A stretch of DNA of 64,000 nt from Prochlorococcus sp. AG-347-J22 (GTDB taxonomy: Bacteria > Cyanobacteriota > Cyanobacteriia > PCC-6307 > Cyanobiaceae). The notes under the pieces were generated by a model. It saw nothing but the letters and a program-made list of their open reading frames with translations, had not been told where the DNA came from and made no database searches. Shown here piece after piece: positions 17,522 through 28,095 of the stretch (its first letter is position 1; the number at the start of each line of letters is the position of its first letter). The translations under genes and the position numbers were made by a program. The stretch lies in NCBI GenBank assembly GCA_003279005.1, contig QCBY01000005.1, positions 1-64,000 on the forward strand. The letters run 5' to 3'.

Positions 17522-17645
17522 TCATTCTTTCTTCCCTAATTTGTTGTAGTAGGCTAATTCAAGGGAATCATTAGAATCGAGTCCATATTTCATTGTCGAA
17601 GCAAAATATATTATTTTCTGTGCATTCGATATGAAGATAATGCCA
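17522..17645 (-). pseudogene. Frameshifted paralogue of the 63-aa ORF at 21338-21529
   Basis: MALSSYRMHRK* in one frame continues as QKIIYFASTMKYGLDSNDSLELAYYNKLGKKE* in the -1 frame; compare MSLSPHRIQKIYLAATMNYGLGSEDLEELAYYEKIRKEM. Confidence 0.65.
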
Positions 17646-17907
17646 TAAAAAATCAATATTCTTAATAATATCAAAGAAATTTGTAAGTTCTTTATCTCTA
17701 ATCACATTAGGACAGCGAAAAATAATCTGCATAGCCCTAACAATATAAGCAGTAATTAGTAAAAATTAGTGTTTGAATTTTAGTAAACCGACTTTCTTAA
17801 TTCTTTCAAATTATTAGCAGGATTAAATAATGTTGCAAAATAGCTTTTGTTTTTATCAGGAGAGTTTGAAGATATTGAAGGAAGTAAGTGAAAAATATGA
17901 TAGCAAT

Positions 17908-20458: not shown

Positions 20459-21241
20459 ATGAACATTATTAAGAGACTCAGGTCGCTACCTAGCGATTCT
20501 TTGAGTGTTATACGCCGTACTCCTCCGCTAGTTTTCGCAATGGCTGTCTTATCTCTTGGAGGTTTTATAGGGGCTTCCACGGTCCTTGTGAGGGGGTTCA
20601 GAATGGTTGAGAATTCCATCACTGTTACTGGTGCAAGTACCGAAAGTTTTGAGAGTGATATTGCAAAATGGTCCGTTCAGGTGAGGGCTACAGCAAAGAC
20701 TCAAATCGACTCATTCAAAAAGCATAAAGAGTCAATGAAAAAAACTATGAATTTCCTTAAAGCCAATGGAATTGAGGATGGTATCAAACAGGAAGTTTAT
20801 CTTGGACCTGCCAGCATAAAAGAATATGAGACAAAGCATCCCAAGACAAATGAAATCATAAGAACTGAATGGATTACCTATCAGAGTATTGAAATCCAGA
20901 GCAATGATGTTCATCGAATTCAAAATACCCACAGCAGGATAACTGAACTTCTTGGTGATGGTGTTTTAGTGAGACCAAGTTCCCCAGAATTTACCTATTC
21001 AAAGCTTGCTGATAAAAGAGTAGATATGCTCGCCAAGGCTGCAAAAGATGCAAGAATCAGGGCTGAGGCTATTGCCTTTCAGGCAGGATCTGAGGTGGGT
21101 GGTTTGAAGAAAGTAAATACTGGTGTTTTTCAGATAACAGTTCCTAATTCCACGAGAGTAAGTAGCTGGGGATCATATGACACAACCACTATCAAAAAAG
21201 ATATCACTGCCGTTATGGGAGTAACTTTTGCAGTTAAGTGA
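20459..21241 (+). CDS. SIMPL-domain (DUF541) protein with N-terminal signal anchor
   Basis: 260 aa; ITVTGASTESFESDIAKWSVQVRATA..., hydrophobic N-terminal helix VFAMAVLSLGGFIGASTVLV; visibly higher GC and different codon choice than flanks. Confidence 0.85.
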   Translation: MNIIKRLRSLPSDSLSVIRRTPPLVFAMAVLSLGGFIGASTVLVRGFRMVENSITVTGASTESFESDIAKWSVQVRATAKTQIDSFKKHKESMKKTMNFLKANGIEDGIKQEVYLGPASIKEYETKHPKTNEIIRTEWITYQSIEIQSNDVHRIQNTHSRITELLGDGVLVRPSSPEFTYSKLADKRVDMLAKAAKDARIRAEAIAFQAGSEVGGLKKVNTGVFQITVPNSTRVSSWGSYDTTTIKKDITAVMGVTFAVK

Positions 21242-21245
21242 TAAC

Positions 21246-21341
21246 TTAAGGAGTCTTCTTTTTGCCTCTAAAAATCATAATTAAAGGTAGACCAATAAGC
21301 ATTAGACTTCCATCAATTAATAAAAAAGTATTCAGATTCAT
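21246..21341 (-). CDS. 31-aa single-pass membrane microprotein
   Basis: MNLNTFLLIDGSLMLIGLPLIMIFRGKKKTP*; start overlaps the stop of the upstream 63-aa ORF (ATGA). Confidence 0.55.
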   Translation of the reverse strand: MNLNTFLLIDGSLMLIGLPLIMIFRGKKKTP

Positions 21342-21529
21342 TTATCCATTCCTTCTGGGTTATCCCAATTTAGGGGTATCCCTTTTTTAACTGGTTCTTT
21401 TTTCATCTCAGCCATCTCTTTTCTGATTTTCTCGTAGTAGGCCAATTCTTCTAGATCTTCAGAACCAAGACCATAGTTCATTGTCGCTGCAAGATAGATT
21501 TTCTGAATTCTGTGTGGTGATAGAGACAT
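21338..21529 (-). CDS. Small hypothetical protein (63 aa)
   Basis: MSLSPHRIQKIYLAATMNYGLGSEDLEELAYYEKIRKEMAEMKKEPVKKGIPLNWDNPEGMDK*; has a decayed paralogue at 17522-17645. Confidence 0.7.
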   Translation of the reverse strand: MSLSPHRIQKIYLAATMNYGLGSEDLEELAYYEKIRKEMAEMKKEPVKKGIPLNWDNPEGMDK

Positions 21530-21595: not shown

Positions 21596-22981
21596 TTGAA
21601 GATGGAAAAATTTAAGTTTGTAGATTTATTTGCAGGTCTTGGCGGATTTCACTATGCCTTAAAAGAATTAGGGGGAGAATGTGTTTTCGCAAGTGAAATA
21701 GATACAAAACTTCGAGAACTTTATATTCGTAACCATAAGCATAAGAAATCTCTAATGTATGGTGATATATCTAAATCAGTTGATCAAGTTCCTCCTCATG
21801 ATGTTTTAGTGGCTGGTTTCCCATGCCAACCTTTCTCTAAAAGCGGCAAACAACTTGGTTTTGAAGATACTAGTAGAGGTAATTGCATCTTTTATGTAAT
21901 TGATATCCTCGAAAGATTAAAGCCAAAATATTTTATTTTTGAAAATGTAAGTAATTTTGCTAAACATAATGATGGCCGAACATGGGAAGAAATAAAAAAT
22001 TTAATAAAAAAATTAGGATATTACGTAAGATCTTCTGCAGATTTCAATCAAAGACTAGATAAATGCAATATAAATCTTTCTCCTCATCAATTTGGCTATC
22101 CTCAAAAAAGAGAGAGATTCTTTGCTGTCGGTTCTTTGGCTTATTTGCCAACAAATCCTTTCCCAATTCCAAATGAGATAAAACCATCACTTAAAAAGAT
22201 TCTTCTAAGTAAAAAAGATTTAAAAAAAAGAAAAGATTCATTGATTGATTTAGATGATTGTCAAATAAATAAGCAAGCAGAAGAATCAATAAATTTATGG
22301 AATAAATTTATTGATTGCTTACCAAATAAACATAAAGATCTACCTTCGGCTTTCCCTTTATGGCTTGAAGAATATTATTCTGACTTTCCCTACGCAACTC
22401 AAACACCATATCAATTTCTTCTTGATAAGGGATTTAATGATGAAAAGATAAATGAGGAATTAGAAAAATTACCTCCTTATGCTAGAGAAAAAGCTTCACA
22501 ATTTCCCCTTTGGAAAATTAAATTTATCGATGACAATAGGAAATGGTTTCGAGATTTTAAAAATTCAATTGATAAATCAATTGTGGATCAAATAAGAAAA
22601 ATGGACTATACATATAGAAAATTAGAATGGAATTTTAAGAATTCAAATTCAAGTGATATTTGGGATCATACAATTCAATTAAGACCGAGTGGTATAAGAG
22701 TTAGTAATCCTATTTATGTTCCAACTATTGTTTCTTTAAATTCATCTCAAAGACCAATTTATGGCCCATTGAAAAGGCATTTGACTGCAAGAGAAATTGC
22801 TAGAGTTTTTGGTTTTCCCAGTTCTTTAAAACTTTTTGGCAATCATAATCTTGATACAAAGGCTTTAGGTAACGCTGTACATAAGGATGTTGTAAAATTG
22901 ATTGCAAAAAATCTTTTAAATTATGGTAACTTGAAAGTCATCAATGATGATTACTCAAGAGAACAAAAAATCTCTGCATGA
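21596..22981 (+). CDS. DNA (cytosine-5-)-methyltransferase
   Basis: 461 aa; motif I FVDLFAGLGGFHYAL, IV VAGFPCQPFSKSGK, VI FIFENVSNF, VIII FGYPQKRERFFAV, IX LTAREIARVFGFP, X ALGNAVHKDVV. Confidence 0.95.
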   Translation: MKMEKFKFVDLFAGLGGFHYALKELGGECVFASEIDTKLRELYIRNHKHKKSLMYGDISKSVDQVPPHDVLVAGFPCQPFSKSGKQLGFEDTSRGNCIFYVIDILERLKPKYFIFENVSNFAKHNDGRTWEEIKNLIKKLGYYVRSSADFNQRLDKCNINLSPHQFGYPQKRERFFAVGSLAYLPTNPFPIPNEIKPSLKKILLSKKDLKKRKDSLIDLDDCQINKQAEESINLWNKFIDCLPNKHKDLPSAFPLWLEEYYSDFPYATQTPYQFLLDKGFNDEKINEELEKLPPYAREKASQFPLWKIKFIDDNRKWFRDFKNSIDKSIVDQIRKMDYTYRKLEWNFKNSNSSDIWDHTIQLRPSGIRVSNPIYVPTIVSLNSSQRPIYGPLKRHLTAREIARVFGFPSSLKLFGNHNLDTKALGNAVHKDVVKLIAKNLLNYGNLKVINDDYSREQKISA

Positions 22982-24591
22982 CTAATTCCAAGCAAGTAAA
23001 TATTACTCCCGGGATGGGGGTTTATGGATATTTTAAGCATATTAACTACAAGCCATGGTTTGCAATAGCTGAATTTATAGATAACGCTATCCAGAGTTTT
23101 GATACAAAAAATGGTTTCTATATTACAAGAGAAAAATGTCTGATAAACATCATATATGACCCAAATAATTTGTTCCTTTCAATTGAAGATAATGCATATG
23201 GAATTGCTGAGAGTGAGCATGAGAGGGCATTTACTGCAGGAGTCCCCCCTTCTGATAGGTCTGGGTTGTCGGAATTTGGAATAGGTATGAAATCTGCGGG
23301 ATTATGGTTCTCTCCAGATTGGAGCGTTATTACTCAACCAATTGACTCTTCAAAGCTATTTACATACAACTTAGTAGAAGAAGATTTAAAAAATAGTAAT
23401 GACGGGAATTTATCACCTTTAGTTGAAGATAAGAAGGCAAAATCAGGTTATACAAAAATTGAACTAAGAAATCTGCATTCAAAGTTGCAAGGAAAAACTT
23501 TAAAAAAAATAAAAGATCACCTTGCATCAATTTATAGGTGCTTTATAAGAGCAAATTTGCTTGAGATTAAATTTAATGGTGAATCTTTAGAATATGAAGA
23601 TCCAAAAATTTTAAACCAACCTCCAGCTTGGGATAAGAACTCAAAAAATATTGAGTGGAAAAAATCTGTATCAGTTAAATTAAATAATGGTGCATTGATA
23701 ACTGGTTTTGTAGCAATAAGAGAGAAAGCATCTACAAGCCAGGCTGGATTTAGTTTATTTAGAAGAAAAAGATTAATAGAAGGTTCAGATGATGAAAAAA
23801 AAAGACCTACTGAAATATTTGGTAAACCAAATACATATATTTATCAAAGACTTTTTGGAGAAATACATATGAATGGATTTGACGTATCGCATACAAAAGA
23901 CAGTTTCAATTTTCTTGATTATGAAGAAGAAATATATGAAAAATTGAAAGATTTAATCAATGAAGAACCTTTAAAATTACTAAAGCAAGCAAGAGAATAT
24001 AGAGTAAATCAAATTACCGAACAATCTGAAATTAATCTTGTTCAGTCAGTCCATCAAACCACTCAATCTATAAGCAAAAATAGTGATGAAATAAAATCTC
24101 AAATAATAGATCCCTCCAAACAAAATAATTTTATAAAACAGTTTTCAGCAACATTTAATAATAATCCACTTTCAGAAATAAAGCCGAGTCAGGTATCAAA
24201 CTATAGTGAACAAAATAAAATTAAAAATATACTTCAAAAAGAAAAATTTTTAAATTACAAAGTCGGTGGTATTTCATGGACAATCTCAGTAGAGATGCAA
24301 GACTTCAATAATTCTGATCAGTTCAATAACAATGAACTTTACTCATTTATTTACGGTGATAAAGAGTCTGAAGATAAAGATAGCAAAGTTAAAAATATTA
24401 ACGTTGTTATTAATACTGGCCATCCCTTAATTATTGATAATTGTAGTGGTTCGCTTGAAGCAATTAAACCAACTCAATCAATTATATTAGCTCTCGCTAT
24501 CTCAGAAATAACTGTGAGTGCTCAAGGTCACAAATTTGTAGGTTTGATGAGACAATCAATTAATGAAATAATTCTGAAAAGTTACACATAA
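22978..24591 (+). CDS. GHKL ATPase of MORC/MutL-like type
   Basis: 537 aa; AIAEFIDNAIQSF (N motif), LSIEDNAYGIAES (G1), EFGIGMKSAGLWFSPDWSV (G2); ATGA overlap with the methyltransferase stop. Confidence 0.85.
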   Translation: MTNSKQVNITPGMGVYGYFKHINYKPWFAIAEFIDNAIQSFDTKNGFYITREKCLINIIYDPNNLFLSIEDNAYGIAESEHERAFTAGVPPSDRSGLSEFGIGMKSAGLWFSPDWSVITQPIDSSKLFTYNLVEEDLKNSNDGNLSPLVEDKKAKSGYTKIELRNLHSKLQGKTLKKIKDHLASIYRCFIRANLLEIKFNGESLEYEDPKILNQPPAWDKNSKNIEWKKSVSVKLNNGALITGFVAIREKASTSQAGFSLFRRKRLIEGSDDEKKRPTEIFGKPNTYIYQRLFGEIHMNGFDVSHTKDSFNFLDYEEEIYEKLKDLINEEPLKLLKQAREYRVNQITEQSEINLVQSVHQTTQSISKNSDEIKSQIIDPSKQNNFIKQFSATFNNNPLSEIKPSQVSNYSEQNKIKNILQKEKFLNYKVGGISWTISVEMQDFNNSDQFNNNELYSFIYGDKESEDKDSKVKNINVVINTGHPLIIDNCSGSLEAIKPTQSIILALAISEITVSAQGHKFVGLMRQSINEIILKSYT

Positions 24592-26915
24592 TGAATGAAG
24601 TTACCCCTATTGATTCAACTAAATTCTGGTCCCCTTCTCAAGGAGATACATTTAAGCAATTTTATAATTACTGTGAGCAAGTTGAAGGCTTACAACAGAA
24701 AGATATCGATATCATAAAAGCTAATGCAAAAAAAATTTTAGAAAGATGTATTAATCCAACTTCAAATGACAAAAGTGTTGCAAGAACAAATCTTCATATT
24801 GGAGATGTTCAAAGTGGTAAAACTTTGACAATGACAGCTGCTATAGCTCTAGCCCATGACAATGGATTCCTTGTGACAACTGTTTTATCTGGTACCAAAA
24901 CAATACTCAAAGACCAAAATGAGTCGAGAATCGAATCGATTCTCCAGAAAATTGATCAAGATAAAGATAAATTCTATTTTAATAAGGGTGATCAATCTCA
25001 ATTGGAAACGCAAGTTGAGAAGTTAAAAAGAAAACCTAAGTCAGGGGTTCCAAATAAGATGATTGTATCGATAATTCTCAAACAAAAAGATAACATAGAG
25101 GTATTGATAGAACAATTCGAAAAACTAAAAATTAATGAAAGAAGCTTTGGTTCATTAATTCTTGATGATGAAGCAGATCAAGCAAGTCTTAATACAATGC
25201 TTAGAAGAGAAGGACAAAAGAGTCCAACTTACAGTTATATAAATTCTCTCATTAATACCCATTCAATTAGTACTACATTTGTCCAAGTGACGGCTACTGC
25301 GAGCGCACTTTTTTGCATCCCTGCAGATGATCCCTTATCTCCTCTTTATGTGTCCTTATCTGAAAGATCTGAAAAATATATTGGTTTACATACTTACTTT
25401 GGGGATGAAGAAAAAATAAACTTTTTTGTTAAGGATATTTCTGAAGATGATATCCCAGAGGCAGGAGAAAATGATAGTAAACCGCCTGATGCACTGATAA
25501 ACGCACTGAATTATTTTATTGTTGCAGTATGTATTGCAAAATTTTATAAGTTAAAAACACCCTACACCTTTTTGTGTCATCCTGATAGCTCAAAATTGGA
25601 ACATAAAAGATATCGAGATTGGATCCAATATCATTTTGATGATTTAAACGATTTACTTTATAAGGATGAAGCTCAATTAATTGCGACAATTGGTTTCAAA
25701 GAAATTATTGAAGAAATTTTAGATAGTACAGGATTTCCAAAACTTATTGAATGGAGTGATATTCAGAATCAATTAATAAAAGTAATTGATAATGCACCAA
25801 TTATTTCAATAATAAATGATGATCACAAAGTCAGTGATCTTAAAACTTTCTGGTCTCAATCCAATGTTCATGTAATTGTTGGGGCTATGTCAATTGAAAG
25901 GGGATTTACCGTAGAAGGATTAATGGTTACATATTTATCTAGGAGTCCTGGAAGAAATGCTGATAATATTCAGCAAAGAGCTAGATTTTGTGGATATAAA
26001 GATCCAAAAGATCCAGAAAAAAGATTACTAAAATTAAGCAGGCTTTGGTTAGATAGTGAGAATTTAGACTTTTTTAGGTCTTCAATAGTTACAGAAAACT
26101 CCATAAGGCATGGATTAGAACCTCATATCAATTATGAAAAACCATATTTTAAAGGTGGATTCGCGATGATTGTCAAAAAGCCATTTAGACCTACCAGAAC
26201 CAATATTCATGATGTTTTAAATACAGATGGAATATTCGGATGGTTTTATCCAAGATCTAGTCAATATTTGTCTGCAGATGAAAGAGAAAAAAATAAATAT
26301 TTGTGTAATGAAATTATAAAAAAATTTAATTTTGAATCTCAAGCGCATAAACAATGGAGATGTACATCCACCAATTCTCTGACAATTGGAGACTTAAAGG
26401 AACTTTTGAAAGAGTATGTTTTTCATGATGATGACAAAAATCATGCAAACATGTTGACGTCAGCTTTAAGAAATAATCTTACCCAATTTGAAGATGAACA
26501 AGAAATTCTTACTTGCTTAAGAGTACCTTTATTAAAGAACACCAAAACTCTAAAACTCAATGGTTATATTGATGAACCATATAATGCTGGTATAAGATTT
26601 CCTAAAAATCCAAAAACAGGTGAAAGACTAAGAAGCTATTCTATGCCAAGAATCAATAACATGGATAGGGGCTATTATCCACCAATAAAAAAAGGACCCA
26701 TGGAATGGATAGATGATAAAAAGATGGTAAATGAAAAAGGTATTACTTTACATTTAAATTTAGTAAGGTTTTCTTTAAAAAATTTAAGAGACTATGATCA
26801 TAGTATTGAAGCCGATAGAAAACTTAATAGTTACTTTGAAAAATCTCATAGTCCAACATTCATAATTCATGTCAAATTTCCTGATTTAAAAAATTGGAGG
26901 TTCTTTAGCCAATAA
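24591..26915 (+). CDS. Z1-domain P-loop/SF2-like ATPase
   Basis: 774 aa; Walker A LHIGDVQSGKTLTMTAAIALA, Walker B LILDDEADQAS, HVIVGAMSIERGFTVEGLMVTYLSRSPGRNADNIQQRARFCGYKD; start overlaps the preceding stop (TAATG). Confidence 0.9.
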   Translation: MNEVTPIDSTKFWSPSQGDTFKQFYNYCEQVEGLQQKDIDIIKANAKKILERCINPTSNDKSVARTNLHIGDVQSGKTLTMTAAIALAHDNGFLVTTVLSGTKTILKDQNESRIESILQKIDQDKDKFYFNKGDQSQLETQVEKLKRKPKSGVPNKMIVSIILKQKDNIEVLIEQFEKLKINERSFGSLILDDEADQASLNTMLRREGQKSPTYSYINSLINTHSISTTFVQVTATASALFCIPADDPLSPLYVSLSERSEKYIGLHTYFGDEEKINFFVKDISEDDIPEAGENDSKPPDALINALNYFIVAVCIAKFYKLKTPYTFLCHPDSSKLEHKRYRDWIQYHFDDLNDLLYKDEAQLIATIGFKEIIEEILDSTGFPKLIEWSDIQNQLIKVIDNAPIISIINDDHKVSDLKTFWSQSNVHVIVGAMSIERGFTVEGLMVTYLSRSPGRNADNIQQRARFCGYKDPKDPEKRLLKLSRLWLDSENLDFFRSSIVTENSIRHGLEPHINYEKPYFKGGFAMIVKKPFRPTRTNIHDVLNTDGIFGWFYPRSSQYLSADEREKNKYLCNEIIKKFNFESQAHKQWRCTSTNSLTIGDLKELLKEYVFHDDDKNHANMLTSALRNNLTQFEDEQEILTCLRVPLLKNTKTLKLNGYIDEPYNAGIRFPKNPKTGERLRSYSMPRINNMDRGYYPPIKKGPMEWIDDKKMVNEKGITLHLNLVRFSLKNLRDYDHSIEADRKLNSYFEKSHSPTFIIHVKFPDLKNWRFFSQ

Positions 26916-27862
26916 TGATTAATATTGAAGATTACAAGATTTTTTTCGAGAGGACTCTTTCACACAACTTTGATAATGATAATTCTATTTTGTTGTTTGA
27001 GGATTTTAAATTAAATAATAGTTGCGTCTTTGGCTTTAATCGTTTTAAAAATTTAGTTATTATTCTGCCTCAAGAAATATATCAATCAAATGTAGGTATT
27101 GATAATGTTTGTATATTAAAAAGTCCAATGGAATATAACTCTGTACTTGATAAATCCTTTAAAATTTTTGGCTGCCCACTAACTTATTATTCTGATGACC
27201 TTGATGAACAGTTTCAACTTTTAAACCATATAGATGATTTACTTTTATTAGAGGATTATGGAAATCAAATAAATAATTTTTTAAATATTCTTGAGAATAT
27301 AAGATTTAGAGCAAGTTCAAAATTTAATAGTTCTGGTTTTTTTGCTGAAGTTTGTACCGTCTTATTTCTGAAAAAGAAATTTCCTAAAATTGCTGATCAT
27401 TGGATAGGTACTAGAAAAACTACTTTCGATATAAAATCTTCACCAGAAAATCCTTTCATAGAGATTAAATCGACTTTAAATATTGATGCAAGGGAACATA
27501 AATTAAGTATTAATCAAATTCAATTTTTTAAAGACAATAAAGATGCCGAATTAGCTTCTTTACTTGTTAGTAAAGATGATGTTAATGGCAAATCATGTAA
27601 TGAAATCTGTAAATTGTTGTTATCAGAGCTTTCAGAACATGAAATTGGATATCAAAATTTATTCAGCATAATTTTGTATTATGCAAGAAATGCTGATTTT
27701 AATAATGATTTGTATGACTTTGAAAAGACAACTAAATCGATAAAATTTTTCAAACCAGATTTTTCAGATTTGAAACTTGATCCACAACCTTTATGGCTTA
27801 CTGGAGGCGTTTTAAATATAGATTTTGATCTAATTAAAAATTTAGATTCAATAATTATTTAG
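26915..27862 (+). CDS. PD-(D/E)XK nuclease-like protein (DUF4420-type), candidate restriction subunit
   Basis: 315 aa; GFFAEVCTVLFLKK...TTFDIKSSPENPFIEIKSTLN (D...E-x-K); TAATG overlap with the Z1 gene. Confidence 0.8.
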   Translation: MINIEDYKIFFERTLSHNFDNDNSILLFEDFKLNNSCVFGFNRFKNLVIILPQEIYQSNVGIDNVCILKSPMEYNSVLDKSFKIFGCPLTYYSDDLDEQFQLLNHIDDLLLLEDYGNQINNFLNILENIRFRASSKFNSSGFFAEVCTVLFLKKKFPKIADHWIGTRKTTFDIKSSPENPFIEIKSTLNIDAREHKLSINQIQFFKDNKDAELASLLVSKDDVNGKSCNEICKLLLSELSEHEIGYQNLFSIILYYARNADFNNDLYDFEKTTKSIKFFKPDFSDLKLDPQPLWLTGGVLNIDFDLIKNLDSIII

Positions 27863-27930: not shown

Positions 27931-28002
<72 letters not shown>

Positions 28003-28013
28003 TCAAATAAAAG

Positions 28014-28095
28014 TGGGCCGGGTTGGATTTGAACCAACGTAGGCAGAGCCAGCGGATTTACAGTCCGCCCCCTTTAACCACTCGGGCACCGACCC
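28014..28095 (-). tRNA. tRNA-Tyr(GTA)
   Basis: Reverse strand GGGTCGGTGCCCGAGTGGTTAAAGGGGGCGGACTGTAAATCCG...GGTTCAAATCCAACCCGGCCCA; long variable arm; anticodon GTA. Confidence 0.97.

What the first reader, a model, noticed from the sequence alone, without database searches (positions are those of the whole stretch)
21596..27862. Four-gene MTase / MORC-like ATPase / Z1 ATPase / PD-(D/E)XK putative restriction-modification or defence operon
Four ORFs are translationally coupled (ATGA overlap at 22978-22981, TAATG overlaps at 24589-24593 and 26913-26917). They encode a C5-cytosine methyltransferase (GFPCQPFS, QKRERFF, ALGNAVHKD), a GHKL ATPase with MORC/MutL-type motifs (EFIDNA, EFGIGMKSAG), a Z1-domain ATPase (GDVQSGKT, LDDEAD, ERGFTVEGL...QQRARFCGY) and a PD-(D/E)XK-like protein (FDIKSS...FIEIKST). 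This gene set matches the architecture that comparative genomics (Iyer/Aravind work on MutL/MORC ATPases in R-M systems) proposed as an unusual ATP-dependent restriction system; to my knowledge its biochemistry is largely untested. High-light Prochlorococcus genomes are streamlined and generally lack R-M systems, so an intact copy here is unexpected. How a MORC-like clamp and a Z1 motor cooperate with a 5mC methylase and nuclease is open.
Basis: partly seen in the sequence, partly recalled or inferred. Interest (0 to 1): 0.9.

Follow-up and report, generated by a model that had tools for sequence, protein, structure and literature searches.

The report
MORC–Z1 restriction-modification operon in Prochlorococcus island
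A tiny ocean cyanobacterium carries, in a slot beside a tRNA gene that its relatives fill with different defence genes, an intact four-gene kit that probably marks its own DNA and uses two ATP-driven machines and a nuclease to cut unmarked phage DNA; this class was predicted in 2008 and its joint mechanism appears still untested.

Summary
Four intact, overlapping genes (21602-27862, +) encode a C5-cytosine methyltransferase, a MORC-type GHKL ATPase, a Z1 ATPase and a divergent DUF4420/PD-(D/E)XK protein; catalytic motifs are conserved, but the DUF4420 match is below Pfam's cut-off. The gene set matches the third class of MORC operons of Iyer et al. 2008, so the kind is known. It is not an MZA system: AIPR and Vsr are absent and MZA models match poorly. 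Its Z1 protein scores better against an NgoAVII-type N-protein family, a characterised restriction ATPase, than against MzaC. All four genes recur in order on a Rathayibacter plasmid. Eight of 267 Prochlorococcus genomes carry the ATPase (two as solo genes). The operon sits in a ~10-kb island ending at tRNA-Thr(GGT). Relatives fill this slot with canonical MZA-like or other restriction genes, often with a tyrosine integrase; tRNA-Thr duplicates flank three such islands. Two strains share a nearly identical operon amid more diverged flanks, with low dN/dS. The rarity claim is overstated: 31 of 87 high-quality genomes have a C5 methyltransferase. Most likely this is an ATP-dependent, methylation-guided restriction system; activity and target site are untested.

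The parts
21602..22981 (+). C5-cytosine DNA methyltransferase, 459 aa, with a long variable region (about residues 181-350); TTG 21596 is an alternative start
   Evidence: PF00145 1.5e-62; PCQ, ENV and QxRxR motifs intact; phmmer to M.HhaI structures ~5e-42
22978..24591 (+). MORC-type GHKL+S5 ATPase, 537 aa, plus a C-terminal region of unknown fold
   Evidence: HATPase_c_3 2.1e-14; N36, EDNAxG, EFGxGMKSA and the MORC signature GhXhhpXXRhl conserved (signature from PMC2292703)
24591..26915 (+). Z1-domain SF2-like ATPase, 774 aa
   Evidence: Z1 PF10593 1.2e-22; PADLOC Helicase_II 2.7e-36, a model that an NgoAVII-type N-protein matches with 1065 bits
26915..27862 (+). Predicted PD-(D/E)XK nuclease, divergent DUF4420, 315 aa
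   Evidence: PF14390 1.3e-4, below cut-off; E-D-ExK residues conserved in every homologue aligned
27931..28002 (-). tRNA-Thr(GGT), likely attachment site of the island, with tRNA-Tyr at 28013-28095
   Evidence: ARAGORN; full duplicates flank the islands of three other genomes
21338..21529 (-). 63-aa conserved gene (copy 2) at the left edge of the operon slot
   Evidence: Next to the slot in most occupied loci
20459..21241 (+). SIMPL/DUF541 gene, left neighbour of the slot
   Evidence: PF04402 8.2e-23; same position in MIT 9401, AG-442-N17, AG-686-M10 and G440
17522..17674 (-). Degraded first copy of the 63-aa gene, marking the left boundary region of the island (about 17.65-17.9 kb)
   Evidence: 61% identity over 28 aa to copy 2; DNA matches empty sites up to about window 17646-17667

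Best explanation
This is an ATP-dependent restriction-modification system carried as cargo in a tRNA-Thr island. The methyltransferase places 5mC at one target site on host DNA. Foreign DNA lacking the mark is engaged by a complex of the MORC ATPase, the Z1 ATPase and the PD-(D/E)XK protein. The MORC dimer would close as an ATP-gated clamp or loop holder, the Z1 protein would hydrolyse ATP on duplex DNA as the N-proteins of NgoAVII/CglI do, and the DUF4420 protein would cut. Shown here: gene identities, intact motifs, co-occurrence of the four genes across divergent copies, transfer between lineages and low dN/dS. Inferred: complex formation, the order of action, and that methylation protects.
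For: Domains and overlaps. Catalytic residues conserved across divergent lineages. The same four-gene order on a Rathayibacter plasmid with 39/31/32/22% local identity, and two further divergent Prochlorococcus versions. Z1 homology to an NgoAVII-type N-protein in a locus with C5 methyltransferase and RE_NgoFVII genes, a family shown to need ATP hydrolysis for cleavage and to spare methylated sites (PMC4267653). The slot holds canonical MZA-like and other restriction genes in relatives. MIT 9401 and AG-442-N17 operons differ at pS 0.005-0.037 while flanking SIMPL differs at 0.18, with few nonsynonymous changes (27 synonymous, 10 nonsynonymous).
Against: No activity, methylation or phage data. 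The nuclease assignment is below Pfam's cut-off and the AlphaFold2 model was too poor to test the fold (pLDDT 38). No dedicated site-recognition domain like the B3 domain of R.NgoAVII was found, so the reader of the site is unknown. Synonymous sites between the window and AG-442-N17 are near saturation, so that dN/dS estimate is rough.
Confidence: 0.62

Rival explanations
1. Phage-triggered (abortive or DNA-structure-sensing) defence: MORC and Z1 sense phage replication intermediates or DNA ends rather than a specific unmethylated site, and the methyltransferase only shields the host from its own nuclease.
For: Related MZA operons carry AIPR, named for abortive infection. No site-recognition domain was found in the restriction genes. 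The methyltransferase is the best conserved gene.
Against: AIPR is absent here and from the rest of the 86%-complete genome. The methyltransferase is retained in every complete copy, as expected if methylation is the self signal. The nearest characterised Z1 relative acts at specific unmethylated sites.
Confidence: 0.2
2. Decayed or domesticated system: the methyltransferase is used as an epigenetic regulator, or the operon is no longer active for restriction.
For: The integrase is absent in the window and split in MIT 9401. Solo MORC genes exist in two genomes.
Against: All four frames are open with intact motifs, and near-identical copies in two strains show mainly synonymous change.
Confidence: 0.1
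3. Type IV-like restriction: the complex cuts foreign modified DNA and the methyltransferase has a separate role.
For: MORC relatives in eukaryotes were proposed to respond to DNA and histone methylation (PMC2292703).
Against: No methyl-binding domain was detected; a co-transcribed host 5mC methyltransferase would make 5mC self.
Confidence: 0.05

Closest known systems
Iyer et al. 2008 third class of MORC operons (MORC + SF2 helicase with Z1 + RE-fold protein, often with a cytosine methylase; PMC2292703)
   Same: All four components, the MORC signature and E-D-ExK residues; horizontal mobility
   Different: The Z1 motif DThhQXuRhFG reads DNIQQRARFCG here, off consensus at up to three positions; that paper had no experimental data
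MZA anti-phage system (MzaB-E; PADLOC and NCBIfam models)
   Same: MORC, Z1 and DUF4420 homologues; in Prochlorococcus both types occupy the same slot
   Different: No AIPR (MzaE) and no Vsr; MzaB 9.8e-5 and MzaC 1.3e-16, far below NCBIfam cut-offs; Z1 774 aa against about 900-960 aa in most Prochlorococcus MZA-like operons
NgoAVII / CglI (C5 methyltransferase + PLD-B3 R-protein + Z1 N-protein)
   Same: Z1 ATPase homologous (26% over 450 aa); C5 methyltransferase; predicted ATP-coupled cleavage
   Different: Nuclease is PD-(D/E)XK and not PLD-B3; an added MORC ATPase; no B3 domain
Four-gene operon on Rathayibacter festucae plasmid NZ_CP047182
   Same: Same four genes and order; all four proteins homologous
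   Different: Actinobacterial plasmid; 17-39% global identity; its DUF4420 match is above the Pfam cut-off

Membership tests
Iyer 2008 MORC/Z1/RE-fold operon class | GHKL ATPase with the MORC S5 signature GhXhhpXXRhl | tested here: met
   GFSLFRRKRLI at residue 257, conserved in all aligned homologues
Iyer 2008 MORC/Z1/RE-fold operon class | SF2 helicase-like protein with a Z1 C-terminal domain | tested here: met
   Z1 1.2e-22; Walker A, DDEAD and TAT motifs present
Iyer 2008 MORC/Z1/RE-fold operon class | Exact Z1 motif DThhQXuRhFG | tested here: inconclusive
   Reads DNIQQRARFCG, a partial match; the Rathayibacter homologue reads DTIQQRARFFG
Iyer 2008 MORC/Z1/RE-fold operon class | Adjacent RE-fold protein with E-D-ExK | tested here: met
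   Residues E145, D172, E183, K185 conserved; the fold itself not confirmed
MZA (MzaA-E) | AIPR protein (MzaE) | tested here: not met
   No AIPR ORF beside the operon; no PF10592 match in the genome, which is 86% complete
MZA (MzaA-E) | MzaB and MzaC above curated model cut-offs | tested here: not met
   20.9 bits against 850 and 59.8 against 1500
NgoAVII/CglI-type restriction | Z1 N-protein ATPase | tested here: met
   Helicase_II 2.7e-36; 26% over 450 aa to an NgoAVII-type N-protein
NgoAVII/CglI-type restriction | R-protein with PLD and B3 domains | tested here: not met
   The fourth gene is DUF4420-like and no RE_NgoFVII match occurs
Restriction-modification system in the functional sense | Site-specific methylation that blocks cleavage of the same site | not testable with these tools
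   Needs EM-seq and restriction assays
tRNA-integrated element (tycheposon-like) | Bounded by a tRNA and carrying a tyrosine recombinase | tested here: inconclusive
   Other islands at this site have duplicated tRNA-Thr and integrases; in the window the left tRNA copy and the integrase are missing

The most novel reading that the evidence does not exclude
The compact four-gene set is a separate class of ATP-dependent restriction enzyme in which no dedicated site-reading subunit exists. The methyltransferase, whose long middle region shares a conserved block (PPYAREK..FPLWKIKFI..NR, RKLEW) with the Rathayibacter and Hymenobacter homologues but not with the MZA-type methyltransferases, would serve as specificity subunit for both methylation and cleavage, while a MORC clamp and an NgoAVII-type Z1 ATPase deliver the nuclease.
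Probability: 0.2. Interest if true: 0.75.

Novelty: new member of a known kind. Interest (0 to 1): 0.5.

Why it matters
How a MORC ATPase acts together with a Z1 ATPase and a nuclease in prokaryotic restriction has been an open proposal since 2008, and MORC proteins matter for gene silencing in plants and animals. This operon is small and complete, recurs across phyla, and exists in MIT 9401, a named Prochlorococcus strain, so that methylome, heterologous-expression and reconstitution tests are practical. It also shows a defence hotspot at tRNA-Thr in a streamlined ocean bacterium.

Tried and rejected
Structure prediction of the nuclease and of the MORC protein with 2- and 4-row alignments gave unusable models (pLDDT 38 and 42), so no fold search was run. 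PDB sequence searches for the MORC, Z1 and PD-(D/E)XK proteins gave no convincing relatives. A genome-contig scan with the Z1 protein alone found nothing, and the MORC alignment found only Prochlorococcus. A viral-contig scan found nothing. A tRNA-Thr duplicate at the left flank of the window was sought and not found. Promoter-like matches were fewer than in shuffles, so none is claimed. Druantia was considered because the methyltransferase hits DruM2 models and rejected because no other Druantia component was hit. MZA membership was considered and rejected for lack of AIPR and weak model scores. Alignment A7 included one wrong segment and was not used.

Full report
Observation. The window holds four open, head-to-tail genes on the + strand with the stated overlaps. 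Pfam recovers DNA_methylase, HATPase_c_3 and Z1 well above cut-off; the fourth protein matches DUF4420 only weakly (21.7 bits against a cut-off of 27). Alignment with homologues shows E145, D172 and E183-x-K185 conserved in every aligned copy, including clear DUF4420 members, so the PD-(D/E)XK reading is likely though not proven. The methyltransferase start is better placed at ATG 21602.

What family. The MORC signature of Iyer et al. 2008, GhXhhpXXRhl, is present as GFSLFRRKRLI, and the operon has the Z1 helicase-like protein, the E-D-ExK protein and the cytosine methylase that the paper lists for its third class (PMC2292703). It fails MZA membership: MzaB and MzaC scores are far below NCBIfam cut-offs, PADLOC has no MORC or nuclease match, and no AIPR is beside it or elsewhere in the 86%-complete genome. 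The Z1 protein scores 2.7e-36 with PADLOC Helicase_II against 1.1e-11 with MzaC. Helicase_II matches, with 1065 bits, the Z1 protein of an N. gonorrhoeae locus that also has a C5 methyltransferase and an RE_NgoFVII PLD-B3 nuclease, that is, an NgoAVII-type locus. N-proteins of that family need double-stranded DNA and their nuclease partner for ATP hydrolysis, hydrolysis is needed for cleavage, and methylated sites are spared (PMC4267653).

Recurrence. The same four genes occur in MIT 9401 and AG-442-N17 (72/61/59/54% identity to the window), in G440 (62/42/41/37%), and in part in AG-347-I15 and AG-686-M10, whose contigs end inside the operon. Outside the genus the whole set occurs on a Rathayibacter festucae plasmid, and a partial relative with Vsr on a Hymenobacter plasmid. 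A search of 294 genomes of the phylum found no close copy outside this genus. In the 267 genomes of the genus, 8 have the MORC protein; in G099 and G543 it is solo and outside this site.

Site. To the left lie SIMPL and a 63-aa gene, to the right tRNA-Thr(GGT), tRNA-Tyr and aroQ. The same slot in other genomes holds Vsr + C5 methyltransferase + MzaB + MzaC + DUF4420 + AIPR operons, a second Z1 set related to PDC-M33, an Eco57I/ResIII set or a helicase with an Mrr domain, often with a tyrosine integrase next to tRNA-Thr. Full tRNA-Thr copies flank the islands of G024, G041 and G026. In the window only the right copy remains; a degraded first copy of the 63-aa gene at 17522-17674 marks the left boundary. 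The island is thus about 10 kb. In MIT 9401 an integrase gene lies between tRNA-Thr and the operon but is split into two ORFs. These features resemble the tRNA-bounded islands called tycheposons (described second-hand in PMC10872708), but membership is inconclusive.

Selection and transfer. MIT 9401 and AG-442-N17 differ by 27 synonymous and 10 nonsynonymous changes over the operon (pS 0.005-0.037), while the flanking SIMPL gene has pS 0.18. The operon therefore probably moved between lineages recently, and most changes are silent, as under purifying selection. The window copy against AG-442-N17 has dN about 0.18-0.34 with dS near saturation.

Specificity. The middle region of the methyltransferase (residues 181-350), where the target-recognition domain should lie, is about as conserved within Prochlorococcus (61-72%) as the catalytic part (65-75%), which suggests that the copies share a target (inference).

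Rarity. 26 of 267 genomes have Z1 and 70 of 267 a C5 methyltransferase (14 and 31 of 87 high-quality genomes). The operon is uncommon but not out of place.

Mechanism. The best-supported reading is restriction-modification with ATP-coupled cleavage. The main rival is phage-triggered defence. Neither was tested; steps that would separate them are given.

Noticed in passing
L127:5505-7040 (G099) and L128:5718-7265 (G543): Solo MORC ATPases of the same subfamily without methyltransferase, Z1 or nuclease neighbours, in regions with sugar-nucleotide genes and away from the tRNA-Thr site.
   Followed up: partly
L057:11352-17150 (G108), also L058, L059, L062: A second multi-gene set (clusters c14, c15, c18) beside a ~698-aa C5 methyltransferase; parts match PADLOC candidates PDC-M33A and PDC-M33C, with DUF6339. 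Possibly an uncharacterised defence system common at this hotspot.
   Followed up: partly
L057:3966-11331 and Synechococcus elongatus plasmid L098:27-8233: Z1 + DUF4420 + PDC-M33A-like genes without MORC, shared between Prochlorococcus and a plasmid.
   Followed up: no
L054:895-1887 (MIT 9401): Tyrosine integrase gene next to tRNA-Thr split into two ORFs.
   Followed up: partly
window:18983-19834: PD-(D/E)XK protein with weak Cas4 similarity inside the island, 93-95% identical in two relatives, far more conserved than the defence cargo.
   Followed up: no
MT835579 and seven other human faecal phage records: Unannotated phage records with Z1-domain homologues.
   Followed up: no
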